Below are positions 4,144-30,952 of a DNA stretch of 33,989 nt, piece after piece. The stretch's first letter is position 1. Each line of letters opens with the position of its first letter. Made by a program: the position numbers and the translations under genes. The stretch comes from a virus: positions 1 to 33,989 of IMG/VR virus record IMGVR_UViG_3300031772_000154. One strand, 5' to 3'. Below the pieces are notes generated by a model that saw only the letters and a program-made list of their open reading frames with translations, did not search any database and was not told the DNA's origin.

Positions 4144-4162
4144 CTAGACGTTCGTGACCCAC
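4143..4162. repeat. 20-bp direct repeat, copy 2
   Basis: Identical to 3931-3950. This copy encodes the last residues of the endolysin (WVTNV and stop). Copy 1, read on the same strand, would encode the same WVTNV-stop preceded by a stop codon. Confidence 0.85.
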
Positions 4163-4767
4163 GAGGGAACACGCGCAAGGTAGTCTTGCCCGATGATGTT
4201 GGCGTCTACCAAGACCCCGCCCCACGTGACGCTGGGAAACATCTGGGTCATGCACCACCCGCAGTTCCACGGCTCGGCCAACGCGTTGTTCCGATCCACG
4301 ATGCGGCCCTGTCCACGCCAGTAACGCTTGACGCGAAGGGCCCACAGCTCTCTGCTTGTGAGCGGTTGAGGCGAGCCCACGTAGAGGCATGGCATCCACC
4401 CGCCCTCCGCGATGGCATCCGCCCACGTGTTGATCTTGTTGACAAGCGCAAGAGGGTCCGACCTGAACGCTTTCATTCCCTCAAGGTCCAGCCACACGGA
4501 CGTGCCGGCTGGAATGCCGAGCGTCTTCAGCTGTCCAATTTCATCGCTTGGCCCGTCCTCATACTCCCCCGCTAGGGTCACGGGCATGAACGCGAGGCCA
4601 CTTGCGAGAACGATGGCGAGTCGTGCGGGGTTGATCACGCCGAGGTACGCAACGAGAAATTCTACACCGGAAGCTTTCAGTGCCGCGGCTTGGGATGTGG
4701 TGCCGGCCTGAGCAAACGGGAGGGAGTCGACTCCGCGCGCTCCCACCGTAGCGGTCACGGCTCTCAT
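4144..4767 (-). CDS. DUF1906 (Rv2525c-like) glycoside-hydrolase-type endolysin, 207 aa
   Basis: A TIM-barrel protein of the DUF1906 group related to GH25 muramidases, found in many phage lysis cassettes. It is expected to cut peptidoglycan glycan strands. Signature stretches are GARGVDSLPF at the N-terminus, VEFLVAYLGVINPARLAIVLASGLAFMPVTLAGEYEDG, SVWLDLEGM carrying the acidic residues expected at the catalytic strand, and LYVGSPQPLTSRELWAL. It has no signal peptide, so access to the wall would need a holin. The ATG at 4767 overlaps the stop of the peptidase gene (ATGA), so I discard the longer upstream frame. The terminal 20 bp are repeated beyond the gene. A non-catalytic wall-binding role is an alternative. 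Confidence 0.7.
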   Translation of the reverse strand: MRAVTATVGARGVDSLPFAQAGTTSQAAALKASGVEFLVAYLGVINPARLAIVLASGLAFMPVTLAGEYEDGPSDEIGQLKTLGIPAGTSVWLDLEGMKAFRSDPLALVNKINTWADAIAEGGWMPCLYVGSPQPLTSRELWALRVKRYWRGQGRIVDRNNALAEPWNCGWCMTQMFPSVTWGGVLVDANIIGQDYLARVPSWVTNV

Positions 4768-5447
4768 ACGTGCGGCACCGTGTAGTCGCCGTCTTCCGCA
4801 AGCAACTGTTTCAGCGTCTCGAAACTCATCGTCCAGTAACCGGAGTCTCCCCACGACGTGCCCCATGAGTTCACTCCGCGGATAAGCTGGGCGTCTACAT
4901 CGATCTCGGTGACCTGCATCTCGTGACCTCCCCGCGACTGACCGGAGATCTTGAGCTCGGCCCGTTGTCCAACGGGCTCGTCAAAACCCTCGTACCAGTT
5001 CACACCAAGCATCCCGGGACCTTTCGCGAGTGAAGCAAGCGCGGCGTGCACGGTAAAGGCGTGCTTGTAACCGGAGAGCCAGTGACGTTTATGTGCAGCC
5101 TTGGCCGCGGCAAGGCCGCTCGATCCCGTGTCATCCGGCGGGAAATGACCTGGGATCTTGTCGAGCCGCGTTGCCTGCTTGTAGAGGTCCAGGCAGTCGA
5201 CTTGCCCAAGCACGCGTGAGGCAGAGTAGAAAGGCTCGGTCATAAGCACGCCAACCATTGCCTCGCACGTGCATGAACCTACGTCTCCTTGGTCGAACGG
5301 TGCCACGAAACGATGCCACCTTGCAGATACGAGCGGGGCGACTTGTCGAACAACCCCGAAGTTCTTGGACTCCGGGTCATGCTCAACATGTCGGCCCAAT
5401 CTTCGGAGCCCGTTGCCGCTCGTTTCCGCAAGGTGTTTGATCTTCAT
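4764..5447 (-). CDS. Papain-like (C1 family) cysteine peptidase, 227 aa
   Basis: The C1 catalytic set is present: Gln and Cys in FDQGDVGSCTCEAM near residue ~55, His in GGHEMQVTEID near residue ~175, and Asn in GVNSWGTSWGDSGYW near residue ~195. The length is close to a mature papain domain and there is no long pro-region or signal peptide. Start ATG 5447 overlaps the lipoprotein stop (ATGA). The longer frame upstream overlaps that gene extensively and is rejected. Its place between a lipoprotein and an endolysin suggests that it cuts host envelope proteins or peptide cross-links at lysis, or matures a virion protein. Papain-fold enzymes are uncommon in phage lysis cassettes. Confidence 0.8.
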   Translation of the reverse strand: MKIKHLAETSGNGLRRLGRHVEHDPESKNFGVVRQVAPLVSARWHRFVAPFDQGDVGSCTCEAMVGVLMTEPFYSASRVLGQVDCLDLYKQATRLDKIPGHFPPDDTGSSGLAAAKAAHKRHWLSGYKHAFTVHAALASLAKGPGMLGVNWYEGFDEPVGQRAELKISGQSRGGHEMQVTEIDVDAQLIRGVNSWGTSWGDSGYWTMSFETLKQLLAEDGDYTVPHV

Positions 5448-5764
5448 CGCTTCGCTTTCAACGCACGGATGGCCGCTGCTGTCTCTGCGTTTGTTGCGCA
5501 CGTGGTGGTCTGAGGAATAACTTTACACGGCGCGGCCATCCTTGCGCCCGCGTCAGAACCCGCGTCCGCACGGACGGAGGCCACGAACGCTGCAAGCGAG
5601 GCGAGCTCTGGAGCCGTGGCACAGATCGAGTCGACCAGAGCCGAGTCAGTCACGGCCTCCACGATCGTGCACGCGGCCTTCGTTCCATCACCGGCTTGCT
5701 TGGGAGTGACGCCACAAGCAGAGACCCCGAGTAGCGTAGCGAATGTCACGTGGTAGAACTTCAC
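5444..5764 (-). CDS. Small lipoprotein of the lysis cassette (candidate outer-membrane spanin subunit), 106 aa
   Basis: The N-terminus VKFYHVTFATLLGVSACGVTP is a lipoprotein signal with lipobox VSAC at residues ~14-17. The rest is alanine-rich and predicted helical, with four further cysteines (TKAACT, DSICAT, APCKV, TTCAT). The GTG start at 5764 overlaps the TGA of the 69-aa gene (GTGA). The stop overlaps the peptidase ATG. A lipoprotein next to a coiled-coil membrane protein and endolysin genes fits a two-component spanin that fuses inner and outer membranes, though typical o-spanins are proline-rich and this one is not. The longer frame through this locus (to 6274) is a shadow upstream of 5764. 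Confidence 0.65.
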   Translation of the reverse strand: MKFYHVTFATLLGVSACGVTPKQAGDGTKAACTIVEAVTDSALVDSICATAPELASLAAFVASVRADAGSDAGARMAAPCKVIPQTTTCATNAETAAAIRALKAKR

Positions 5765-5970
5765 CGCTCGCCCTTGGGTGACGACTCGGGTACGGGAACA
5801 CGTCGCTCCCTCACTGTCTCGGGGACTTCCTCGATTGAAAGCTGTGAAGGGTCCGAGCCCTTGCAAATGTCCGCAAGCTCCGCGCCGCTCACCATCTTGG
5901 GTGGTTGGCCGGGCCACGTGTACTTGTAGTTTTTGGCTGGGTCGATCGTGAGGGGCATGGTCATTGTCAT
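5761..5970 (-). CDS. Hypothetical protein, 69 aa
   Basis: The protein starts MTMTMPLTIDPAKNYKYTWPGQPPKMVSGAELADICKG and ends in a charged, proline-containing tail. It has no membrane segment or signal. No family is recognised. It overlaps both neighbours (TGATG upstream, GTGA downstream), which makes it a genuine member of the lysis operon. A lysis-regulator or virion-component role cannot be told apart. Confidence 0.6.
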   Translation of the reverse strand: MTMTMPLTIDPAKNYKYTWPGQPPKMVSGAELADICKGSDPSQLSIEEVPETVRERRVPVPESSPKGER

Positions 5971-6566
5971 CAGGGTGCTCCGAACTTTTTTGCATAGTAC
6001 GCCAGCATGGCGAGGATGAAACCGCCGAACGCGTAGGCCACCTTTTCTGCCATCTTTGATCGAAGCGCGAGGCCAACTGATGAGGCGATGCCATCGAGCA
6101 CCTTGCCGCGTTGATCTGCAGCTTGCGCGATCGCAGCGATAGCAGCAGCGGATTGCTCCGCGAGAGCGTGGGTCTCTTGGATCTTCTGGTCTTGCTCCTG
6201 ATTGCGAATGATTTCGCTAGCTTGCGCGGCCTGCAAAGAGAGATCCATATCGCTCGGCCGCTTCGCGTGATCACTCAACCTAGCAACCCGCGCCTGAGAC
6301 TCGTTGCGCCAGTCATCCAACCGGATGCGCCAAGACTGAAGCCCACGTACATCTTGCTTCAAGGAGTGGAACTCGCCGGAGAGGAGCGTAAAGTCTGCCT
6401 TCACGGACGTAAACCCCGCATCCTGCTTGGCCTCAACGCGTTCAATCGTGCCCACGACCTTGTTTAGCAGGCCTCCAAAGATCTCCCCCTGCGACAGCTG
6501 CTTCGTGGGGACATAGTCCGGACCTACCGGTCTCGACTCAGGCAACGTTTCGTCATCCTTTGGCAT
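5970..6566 (-). CDS. Coiled-coil protein with C-terminal membrane anchor (spanin- or holin-like), 198 aa
   Basis: The sequence is a long, heptad-rich charged helix (about residues 30-160, for example NKVVGTIERVEAKQDAGFTSVKADFTLLSGEF and SEIIRNQEQDQKIQETHALAEQSAAAIAAIAQ). A single hydrophobic segment near the C-terminus, VAYAFGGFILAMLAYYAKK, closes it. The position between the fibres and the lysis enzymes suits either a C-tail-anchored holin-type protein or an inner-membrane spanin of inverted orientation. The anchor is at the C-terminus, whereas classical i-spanins are anchored at the N-terminus, so neither call is secure. Many phages carry similar proteins next to the endolysin. Confidence 0.6.
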   Translation of the reverse strand: MPKDDETLPESRPVGPDYVPTKQLSQGEIFGGLLNKVVGTIERVEAKQDAGFTSVKADFTLLSGEFHSLKQDVRGLQSWRIRLDDWRNESQARVARLSDHAKRPSDMDLSLQAAQASEIIRNQEQDQKIQETHALAEQSAAAIAAIAQAADQRGKVLDGIASSVGLALRSKMAEKVAYAFGGFILAMLAYYAKKFGAP

Positions 6567-28010: not shown

Positions 28011-28457
28011 CTACCTCGACACGAGCGAGCGCGCTAGCGCCATTCGATCGCGCGAGATCCGCCTCGCCTCTTCCGACTCAAACCGAGGACCGCGCGCATA
28101 GAACGCAACCGGGTTCGCGCGGTCGACACGGACCGACGTCTTCAGCATGCGGTGGCCCGTGCGAACGCACGCGACCGCGTCGTCGTTCAGTGAAGGATCG
28201 CCGCCGTGGATCTGCATGGCGCAAACGGATCGACCTCCGTCGCCGAGGATGCTTGCGGTCAACGACGATTCACGGAACGCGACCGCGACGAGCAACGACG
28301 CCGTCCGTTCGAGGTCGGCGTCGTTCGCGAAAAGAGGACCCTCTTCGACGACGACGATCGTGATCGCGGTCGCTAGCGCCCCGTGTCGCGCGATCGGTTG
28401 CTCCGACGGCGAGAGTCGAAGCATCATCGCGAGGACGACCCAATAGAGGTGAACCAT
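28011..28457 (-). CDS. Lytic transglycosylase-like (SLT) protein, 148 aa
   Basis: Peptidoglycan-cleaving domain, probably used to pierce the wall at entry or to support assembly. The catalytic Glu is in LLVAVAFRESSLTASILGDGGRSVCAMQIHGG, the standard SLT pattern (A-x-x-x-E-S-x-L and the later S-x-G-x-x-Q-I). DDAVACVRTGHRML and NPVAFYARG follow. The N-terminal MVHLYWVVLAMMLRLS resembles a signal or anchor segment. It is encoded directly after the terminase and separate from the lysis cassette, which has its own enzymes. Confidence 0.75.
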   Translation of the reverse strand: MVHLYWVVLAMMLRLSPSEQPIARHGALATAITIVVVEEGPLFANDADLERTASLLVAVAFRESSLTASILGDGGRSVCAMQIHGGDPSLNDDAVACVRTGHRMLKTSVRVDRANPVAFYARGPRFESEEARRISRDRMALARSLVSR

Positions 28458-30375: not shown

Positions 30376-30422
30376 TTGCGCGCCTTCATGATCAGCGCCT
30401 CGACGACCGTGCGAGTCATCAT
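30372..30422 (-). CDS. Possible 16-aa coupling peptide
   Basis: MMTRTVVEALIMKARK begins at an ATG that overlaps the lipoprotein stop and ends by overlap with the GTG of the zinc-ribbon gene. Both junctions are of the type used across this genome. It would bridge the two genes translationally. Too short to assess otherwise. Confidence 0.25.
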   Translation of the reverse strand: MMTRTVVEALIMKARK

Positions 30423-30952
30423 CTCATGATGCACTTGCCCGCGAGCGCACGTGCCCCGTACACCTTGGCCGTCTCGGGGCCGTAGACGTTGCATGCAGGG
30501 CTTCCCTTACACGTCCCCTGCCAAGCCCCCTGGTAACAAACGAAGGGTGTGAAGTCCGCGTTCTGACCGTACCAGTCGTTCGCGTTGGGGCACCCGACCT
30601 CGCCAGAGGCGATGACGTGGAGCGGGTCCGTGTTTGCGTTCAGAACGCAGTAAGCCTTCGCCGGTGGCGGAGGGGGCGGAGGCGGTGGCGGAGGTGGCGG
30701 AGGCGGTGGCGGAGGGGGCGGAGGCGGTGGCGGAGGGGGCGGAGGCGGTGGCACAATGGTCGCATCAGTCTCTCCGTCAACCGCGCCACCGTCCTGCGCC
30801 ACTGCTGCTTCTCCCGTGACCTCGGACATGTCTGGAGTCTGTCCAGCGTCTACCTCTGACGTCACATCCTGAACAGACGTGGGGCCAGTGGTCTCGGGTG
30901 CGGACGAGCACGCAACGGACCCAACGAGCGCGAAGGCAAAGAGTGCTCTCAT
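30419..30952 (-). CDS. Poly-proline cysteine-rich lipoprotein, 177 aa
   Basis: The signal MRALFAFALVGSVACSS has a lipoprotein-type cysteine at ~15 (weak lipobox SVAC). An acidic D/A/G-rich linker follows (TSVQDVTSEVDAGQTPD...DGGAVDGETDATIV), then 30 consecutive prolines, then a C-terminal domain with six cysteines (YCVLNA, VGCPNA, FVCYQG, GTCKG, PACNV, GKCIM), probably disulphide-linked in the periplasm or outside. Thirty prolines as a PPII rod would span about 9 nm. The linker style is like Myxococcota lipoproteins. It is coupled by ATGA to a membrane peptide and a regulator. Roles could be superinfection exclusion, spanin or surface remodelling; none is shown. The codon style is closer to the 2.5-17.9 kb block. 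Confidence 0.7.
   Translation of the reverse strand: MRALFAFALVGSVACSSAPETTGPTSVQDVTSEVDAGQTPDMSEVTGEAAVAQDGGAVDGETDATIVPPPPPPPPPPPPPPPPPPPPPPPPPPPPPPAKAYCVLNANTDPLHVIASGEVGCPNANDWYGQNADFTPFVCYQGAWQGTCKGSPACNVYGPETAKVYGARALAGKCIMR
30663..30752 (-). repeat. 21-bp tandem repeat encoding poly-proline
   Basis: About 4.3 copies of a 21-bp unit (seven proline codons: CCN in mixed use), nearly identical between copies with one third-position change in copy 2. It encodes the 30-proline stretch. In-frame length change by slippage is likely. Confidence 0.85.

What the first reader, a model, noticed from the sequence alone, without database searches (positions are those of the whole stretch)
4144..6566. 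Lysis cassette with a papain-like peptidase and a DUF1906 enzyme
A C1-family peptidase with the complete Q-C-H-N set lies between a lipoprotein and a DUF1906 endolysin, all by 4-base overlaps. C1 peptidases are rare in phage lysis modules. It may cut outer-membrane-anchored or wall-linked proteins of the host, or process the lipoprotein.
Basis: partly seen in the sequence, partly recalled or inferred. Interest (0 to 1): 0.6.

Follow-up and report, generated by a model that had tools for sequence, protein, structure and literature searches.

The report
Papain-like protease in phage lysis cassette
A phage that probably infects slime bacteria (Myxococcota) carries a papain-type protease between an outer-membrane-type lipoprotein and a cell-wall-cutting enzyme, and relatives of this protease recur in the lysis genes of many other phages, so some phages may digest proteins as well as cell wall to break out.

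Summary
On the minus strand a lipoprotein (5444-5764), a C1 peptidase (4764-5447; Q53-C59-H175-N193) and a GH25/Rv2525c-like ("DUF1906") enzyme (4144-4767) overlap by four bases each. The peptidase is the xylellain type of papain-family enzyme: PHROG 16701 E 5e-51; AlphaFold pLDDT 94.5; xylellain Z 22.6. Its conserved first ~36 residues align with zymogen propeptides, so it is probably made latent.

The claim that such peptidases are rare in lysis modules is not supported. A two-motif scan found 423 viral loci. In 24 of 95 non-redundant loci the next gene is a wall hydrolase (control mean 2.5, maximum 7), and at least 12 gains or losses of the lysis setting are needed on the tree. Close relatives keep lipoprotein-C1 while the hydrolase is swapped (GH25, DUF1906, unrecognised). 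A tail-gene region in a Myxococcota-phylum genome shares nine proteins with the window, including this hydrolase, but has no C1. In two DUF1906 relatives another putative protease family fills the slot.

Best reading: a latent protease released with the endolysin at holin opening, digesting envelope or matrix proteins. Substrate and activity are untested. Known enzyme type, little-described recurrent setting: a new variant of a known kind.

The parts
5970..6566 (-). 198-aa protein, coiled-coil-like with a hydrophobic C-terminal segment; holin-accessory (XhlA-like) candidate
   Evidence: ORF; homologous to the gene in the same place in L179 (31% over 118 aa, E 2e-9), which is itself homologous to L016 and L019. 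No significant Pfam, PHROG or NCBIfam match. XhlA likeness is recalled, not tested.
5761..5970 (-). 69-aa protein of unknown role
   Evidence: ORF; no family match
5444..5764 (-). small lipoprotein (lipobox VSAC, then conserved Cys), possible outer-membrane lysis lipoprotein
   Evidence: same family directly upstream of C1 in L016, L018, L019, L021, L171
4764..5447 (-). xylellain-type C1A (papain family) peptidase; residues 1 to about 36 form a putative short propeptide; Q53 C59 H175 N193
4144..4767 (-). GH25/Rv2525c-like (former DUF1906) putative muramidase, endolysin candidate; D94-x-E96
   Evidence: 48% identical to the gene in a tail-gene region of a Myxococcota-phylum genome

Best explanation
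The cassette is the lysis module of a contractile-tailed phage, probably of Myxococcota. The C1 peptidase is a xylellain-type papain-family protease made in the cytoplasm without a signal peptide and held latent by its own conserved N-terminal ~36 residues. When the membrane is opened by the phage's holin, it escapes together with the DUF1906/GH25-like muramidase. The muramidase cuts the glycan. The protease, once activated, digests proteins that hold the envelope or surrounding matrix together (peptidoglycan-bound or outer-membrane proteins, or extracellular matrix), so that cells come apart and virions get free. The small lipoprotein is a separate outer-membrane component of the same module. 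Shown here: gene order, overlaps, conserved catalytic residues, predicted fold, recurrence in lysis cassettes, swapping of the hydrolase. Inferred: latency, route of export, substrates, the lipoprotein's role, host.
For: Family and fold: PHROG 16701 E 4.7e-51; model pLDDT 94.5, pTM 0.92; xylellain 3ois_A Z 22.6, rmsd 2.4, 206 aligned. Latency: most proenzyme rows (procathepsins B, K, L, H, S, pro-papain, procaricain) align from model residue 8-10 with about 200 residues, most mature plant papains only from 36-38 with 172-178; G18, R19, D24 are 62 of 62 in A7. Lysis setting: PG hydrolase as the next gene in 24 of 95 loci vs control mean 2.5, max 7 in 1000 draws; within 3 genes in 43 of 95 vs mean 24.2, max 32 of 200; 16 label changes on the tree, at least 12 forced by well supported branches. 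Gordonia order: C39 or other lysin A protease - amidase or GH19 - 122-127 aa - C1 - holin. Close kin: lipoprotein-C1 kept, hydrolase swapped. Host: a region with tail genes in G094 (drawn from the phylum of a Myxococcales MAG) shares nine proteins with the window.
Against: No activity or substrate data. 50 of 95 loci show no recognised PG hydrolase on the same strand within 4 genes, and 7 of 13 isolated phages have the gene elsewhere. The related G094 cassette and four DUF1906 contigs (L172, L173, L176, L177) have no C1 match, so it is dispensable. No clear holin was found in the window's own cassette. Some mature enzymes (Der p 1, T. brucei cathepsin B) also align from model residue 23-27, which softens the propeptide reading; coordinates could not be inspected.
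Confidence: 0.5

Rival explanations
1. The C1 enzyme is itself a peptidoglycan endopeptidase, a second endolysin that cuts stem peptides or cross-bridges while the muramidase cuts glycan.
For: It sits among lysin A pieces in Gordonia phages, and GMA2's record calls it 'putative lysin'. Papain-like folds include wall enzymes such as CHAP and NlpC/P60 (PMC10318531, passages).
Against: Nearest folds are C1A protein endopeptidases, not CHAP or NlpC; no wall-binding domain seen; Gordonia cassettes already carry a C39-annotated protease domain as well.
Confidence: 0.15
2. The enzyme is carried in the virion or acts inside the infected cell (takeover, anti-defence), and its place next to lysis genes is only the end of the late operon.
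For: In mycobacteriophages, Streptomyces phages and XacN1 it lies among DNA, tRNA or metabolic genes. In the window and in many Streptomyces-type contigs tail genes lie just upstream.
Against: Strong excess of a PG hydrolase as the very next gene and repeated gain or loss of that setting; conserved coupling to the lipoprotein in close kin.
Confidence: 0.15
3. The lipoprotein and the peptidase are a pair: the lipoprotein is the enzyme's inhibitor, anchor or substrate.
For: Of 7 records with the lipoprotein family, 6 (window plus 5 of 5) have C1 directly downstream.
Against: The seventh (L179) has a putative metallo-enzyme there instead. Other C1 loci have unrelated upstream genes. A different small lipoprotein occurs in the G094 cassette without C1.
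Confidence: 0.12
4. It is a passenger gene moved between cells and phages, with no role in lysis.
For: Non-phage bacterial relatives appear to exist (L102, L103, L108-L112), and literature reports horizontal gain of xylellain-type peptidases by tailed phages (PMC10380794, passages).
Against: Position bias, 4-base coupling and catalytic conservation.
Confidence: 0.08

Closest known systems
Xylellain-type C1A peptidases (3ois, Xylella fastidiosa); PHROG 16701 'peptidase'
   Same: Fold (Z 22.6), Q-C-H-N set, N-terminal extension covered by the alignment
   Different: Phage-encoded, 227 aa, placed in a lysis module next to a lipoprotein
'Cysteine protease' of Gordonia phages GMA2, Sixama, BlueNGold, Morgana, Lilbeanie and Arthrobacter phage Mufasa8
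   Same: Homologous (36-43% identity), in or beside the lysis genes
   Different: Different upstream partner, no lipoprotein; hosts are Actinobacteria; C39 plus amidase or GH19 endolysins (M23-like in Mufasa8, my reading)
Rv2525c / GH25 muramidases (4pmq, 1jfx, phiSM101 endolysin 4krt)
   Same: Fold of the DUF1906-like enzyme (Z 14.9, 13.1, 14.7) and a conserved D-x-E
   Different: Below Pfam's cut-off for PF08924; the model is only moderately confident (pLDDT 77)
Two-component spanins (Rz/Rz1)
   Same: Small lipoprotein in the lysis cassette of a presumably Gram-negative phage
   Different: The membrane partner has its hydrophobic segment at the C-terminus, not the N-terminus; the lipoprotein is Cys-containing

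Membership tests
C1A papain-family peptidase (xylellain type) | Gln, Cys, His, Asn catalytic set in order | tested here: met
   Q53 C59 H175 N193; 62, 62, 62 and 59 of 62 rows; independent phage set
C1A papain-family peptidase (xylellain type) | Papain fold | tested here: met
   xylellain Z 22.6, rmsd 2.4, 206 aligned; 3ois also first by Foldseek
Pfam PF00112 (Peptidase_C1) as a model | Gathering score | tested here: not met
   16.7 vs 20.7 bits. The diverged relative L100 5394-6161 does pass, 25.6 bits. The filing as C1A rests on fold and residues, not on this model.
PHROG 16701 (phage peptidase) | Full-length profile match | tested here: met
   E 4.7e-51, residues 16-227 on profile 3-230 of 234
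C1A papain-family peptidase (xylellain type) | Proteolytic activity | not testable with these tools
   needs purified protein
Pfam PF08924 (Rv2525c-like, former DUF1906) as a model | Gathering score | tested here: not met
   13.6 vs 27.2 bits; all 4 of 4 relatives match at E<=1, best E 3.7e-5
Rv2525c / GH25 fold group | TIM-barrel fold of GH25 and Rv2525c | tested here: met
   1sfs Z 16.3, 4pmq Z 14.9, 4krt Z 14.7, 1jfx Z 13.1, model pLDDT 77
GH25 muramidase | D-x-E catalytic motif (motif recalled) | tested here: met
   D94-L-E96 invariant in 4 of 4
GH25 muramidase | Muramidase activity | not testable with these tools
   needs purified protein
Two-component spanin | i-spanin with N-terminal membrane segment and periplasmic coiled coil (recalled) | tested here: not met
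   The 198-aa candidate is hydrophobic at its C-terminus
Two-component spanin | o-spanin lipoprotein with lipobox | tested here: met
   VSAC in the window, MSAC in L016, LVAC in L019; L018 has a poor lipobox, ETAC
Holin-endolysin lysis cassette | Holin gene present in the cassette | tested here: inconclusive
   None recognised in the window; relatives L078 and L179 have a 2-TM protein and L038 a PHROG holin in that place

The most novel reading that the evidence does not exclude
Lysis cassettes of these (Myxococcota-type) phages contain a protease slot: beside the lipoprotein and muramidase sits a protease whose clan is exchangeable - C1A in the window, L018, L175 and the L096 record; a SHExxE putative metallo-enzyme family in L178 and L179; a matrixin-like lipoprotein in L097 (L020 has both a matrixin-like lipoprotein and C1). 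Phage lysis would then include a dedicated proteolytic step against the envelope or matrix, besides holin, endolysin and spanin.
Probability: 0.3. Interest if true: 0.75.

Novelty: new variant of a known kind. Interest (0 to 1): 0.5.

Why it matters
Phage lysis is usually described as three steps: membrane, wall, outer membrane. A recurrent protease coupled to the wall hydrolase and a lipoprotein, and replaceable by an unrelated putative protease, would point to protein digestion as a lysis step in phages of soil bacteria with protein-rich envelopes or matrices. It is directly testable with one catalytic mutant, and it would give a function to a PHROG family now labelled only 'peptidase'.

Tried and rejected
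Rarity of C1 in lysis modules: rejected. Exact two-enzyme pairing C1-DUF1906 as the conserved unit: rejected, since the hydrolase is swapped and DUF1906 occurs without C1.

BetterKatz as a literature precedent: its gp29 'cysteine protease-like' endolysin (PMC4982276, passage) is not among the 54 records that match this family (all rows listed), so it is not counted. Whether BetterKatz is held in that collection was not checked.

Searches that gave nothing: single-protein C1 scan of viral contigs (7 stretches, none confirmed); DUF1906 protein against phages and its profile against PDB sequences; L179 enzyme against phages; L175 against PDB sequences; NCBIfam for the cassette (only weak, unrelated rows). 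The statement that the lysis association is little described rests on searches (listings), and on passages of PMC4982276, PMC9671378, PMC9862828, PMC10318531 and PMC10380794; it covers open-access papers only.

Limits of my counts. Wall-hydrolase seeds for one search were picked after looking at C1 neighbours, which favours the observed count; of 8 such neighbours given to PHROGs, 7 matched a family named endolysin (L023 weakly, E 0.0016) and the L016 protein matched none. Gene calls in contigs come from a home-made caller. The label 'GH24' used in scripts for L016 is only my reading: Pfam and PHROGs gave no match. Loci were fetched by motif, so motif conservation is biased. Six of 162 loci without a C1 gene call, and 15 of 110 cluster representatives with fewer than three genes on a side, were left out of the counts.
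Full report
Check of the observation. The five minus-strand genes 6566->4144 are as described. The lipoprotein begins at a GTG at 5764 and has a lipobox (VSAC). The peptidase (227 aa from the ATG at 5447) has Q53, C59, H175 and N193. The last gene (207 aa from 4767) matches PF08924 only weakly (E 0.071, below its cut-off). The lipoprotein, peptidase and DUF1906-like genes each overlap by four bases with the gene before them. Upstream lie tail genes (baseplate, Gly-rich tail protein).

What the peptidase is. PHROG 16701 'peptidase' matches over nearly the whole length (E 4.7e-51). tblastn finds 54 phage records at E<=1e-3: Mycobacterium 18, Gordonia 15, Streptomyces 15, Arthrobacter 2, Stenotrophomonas 2, one GX15bay and one XacN1. 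The AlphaFold model from a 62-row alignment is confident (pLDDT 94.5, pTM 0.92). Xylellain is first in both comparisons (Foldseek E 2.1e-10 and 2.7e-10 for its two best chains; Z 22.6, rmsd 2.4, 206 aligned). Most proenzymes align from model residue 8-10 with about 200 residues, beginning inside their propeptides, while most mature papains align only from 36-38 with 172-178 residues; mature Der p 1 and T. brucei cathepsin B start at 23-27. I infer a short N-terminal propeptide lying in the cleft. That xylellain's N-terminus blocks its active site is recalled; I saw only the title of that paper in a reference list. There is no signal peptide (my reading of the sequence).

What the neighbour is. 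The DUF1906-like model (4 rows, pLDDT 77) is nearest 1sfs (Z 16.3), Rv2525c (Z 14.9) and the GH25 endolysin of phiSM101 (Z 14.7). D94-x-E96 is invariant in 4 of 4. So it is a GH25/Rv2525c-like putative muramidase.

Setting of the family. I looked at 13 isolated phages. In 6 (Mufasa8, GMA2, Sixama, Morgana, Lilbeanie, BlueNGold) C1 is in or beside the lysis genes; in 7 (GX15bay, Shaeky, XacN1, Circinus, Saguaro, DrLupo, Sycamore) it is not. A viral-contig scan with two motifs confirmed 423 relatives, of which 80 were kept; a second scan confirmed 130 and kept 80; a genome scan gave 18. Of 162 loci, 156 have a C1 gene call, forming 110 clusters at 85% identity; 95 representatives have at least three genes on each side. 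A recognised wall hydrolase lies on the same strand within three genes in 43 of 95 (control mean 24.2, maximum 32 of 200 draws) and is the very next gene in 24 of 95 (control mean 2.5, maximum 7 of 1000). On a tree of the 95, 45 'lysis' and 50 'other' labels (within four genes) need 16 changes, at least 12 forced by starred branches, against 31.8 when shuffled: the setting is clustered, yet gained or lost many times. The seeds for hydrolases came partly from C1 neighbours, which favours the observed count.

Close relatives. In L016, L018, L019 and L021 the order is coiled-coil protein with C-terminal hydrophobic segment - lipoprotein - C1, the last two overlapping by four bases. The hydrolase that follows differs: DUF1906-like in the window and L018, GH25 in L017, L019 and L020 (Pfam E 9.9e-33, 6.2e-33, 4.1e-22), and an unrecognised 264-aa protein in L016. 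L078 has coiled coil - 2-TM - lipoprotein - C1 - GH25; in L038 a PHROG holin is fused to a lipoprotein-like tail just before C1.

Is the lipoprotein tied to C1? A scan with the lipoprotein alignment, not selected on C1, gave 5 loci, 5 of 5 with C1 directly downstream; four of these five records were already known from the C1 scan. L179, found through DUF1906, has the same lipoprotein family (E 1.3e-13) followed by a 240-aa protein with SHEVLE, then DUF1906. L178 has a homologue of that enzyme (27% identity, E 2e-11). The family has no match in PHROGs or NCBIfam and no significant one in Pfam at the limits used; 'metalloprotease' is my inference from the motif.

DUF1906-bearing records. Besides the window, one search gives 10. 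C1 near: L174 (= L018 record), L175 (diverged, HMM E 3.7e-7), and the L096 record, where a diverged C1 that passes Pfam PF00112 lies several kilobases upstream. SHExxE: L178, L179. Matrixin-like lipoprotein on the other strand: L097 (Pfam E 1.8e-7). No protease seen near: L172, L173, L176, L177; no C1 anywhere in those four records, though L176 is a 6.6-kb fragment.

Host. Of 377 genomes drawn from the phylum of a Myxococcales MAG, 3 match the DUF1906-like profile at E<=1e-5; two of the three are weaker matches without a phage-like setting. The third, G094, has a region (L166) with tape-measure, baseplate and other tail genes of which nine proteins match the window's in the same order (26-48% identity, E down to 2e-56). 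Its cassette is a 65-aa TM protein - 66-aa lipoprotein - 56 aa - DUF1906-like, with no C1; no C1 match was found in that genome. The small lipoprotein and 56-aa gene are homologous to those just before C1 in L020 (53% and 64%), as if C1 had been inserted there or lost here.

How it most likely works. A late-expressed, latent protease escapes with the muramidase at holin opening, is activated, and digests envelope or matrix proteins. Lysis-module membership is well supported; latency moderately; substrate and timing are inference. The alternatives are a peptidoglycan endopeptidase, a virion or intracellular enzyme, a lipoprotein partner, or a passenger.

Compared with what is known. PMC10380794 (passages) already reports that short xylellain-type peptidases were acquired by Myoviridae and Siphoviridae, and GenBank records name the gene 'cysteine protease', 'peptidase' or 'putative lysin' beside holins. 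What I did not find described in the searches listed under Tried and rejected is the recurrent coupling to the hydrolase and, in this lineage, to a lipoprotein, with possible substitution by other proteases. Hence 'new variant of a known kind', interest 0.5.

Noticed in passing
L179 5142-5864; L178 4699-5460: Unnamed SHExxE protein family (27% identity, E 2e-11) in the place of the C1 peptidase; no significant Pfam, PHROG or NCBIfam match at the limits used
   Followed up: partly
L038 5288-5968; L100 4226-4786; L172 5074-5484; L173 4918-5532; L175 4270-4872: Holin-like N-terminal part apparently fused to a lipobox-bearing, lipoprotein-like tail in one reading frame (PHROG holin match for L038 E 1.5e-6 and L100 E 0.0019; the other three read from sequence only)
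   Followed up: partly
L097 7212-7874 and L020 3502-4083: Lipoprotein-like matrixin proteins (M10) near lysis genes; L020 has one four genes upstream of C1 and is below Pfam's cut-off
   Followed up: partly
28011-28457: 148-aa protein beside the terminase gene that reads like a lytic transglycosylase (my reading; no Pfam or PHROG match), 84% identical in L015
   Followed up: partly
30419-30952: Lipoprotein-like protein with a long poly-proline run upstream of the terminase gene; no Pfam match
   Followed up: partly
L059, L102, L103, L012: The catalytic Asn is replaced by Gln in some C1 relatives
   Followed up: no
L003, L004, L005, L006: Separate Gordonia lysis proteins (C39, amidase or GH19) share a C-terminal motif like NLLGLTDxELAEFAxNMRQLGP, perhaps a common wall-targeting tail
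   Followed up: no
L015: Closest relative found for the window's head module (terminase 74%, capsid 77%); a 15-kb fragment that does not reach the lysis genes
   Followed up: partly
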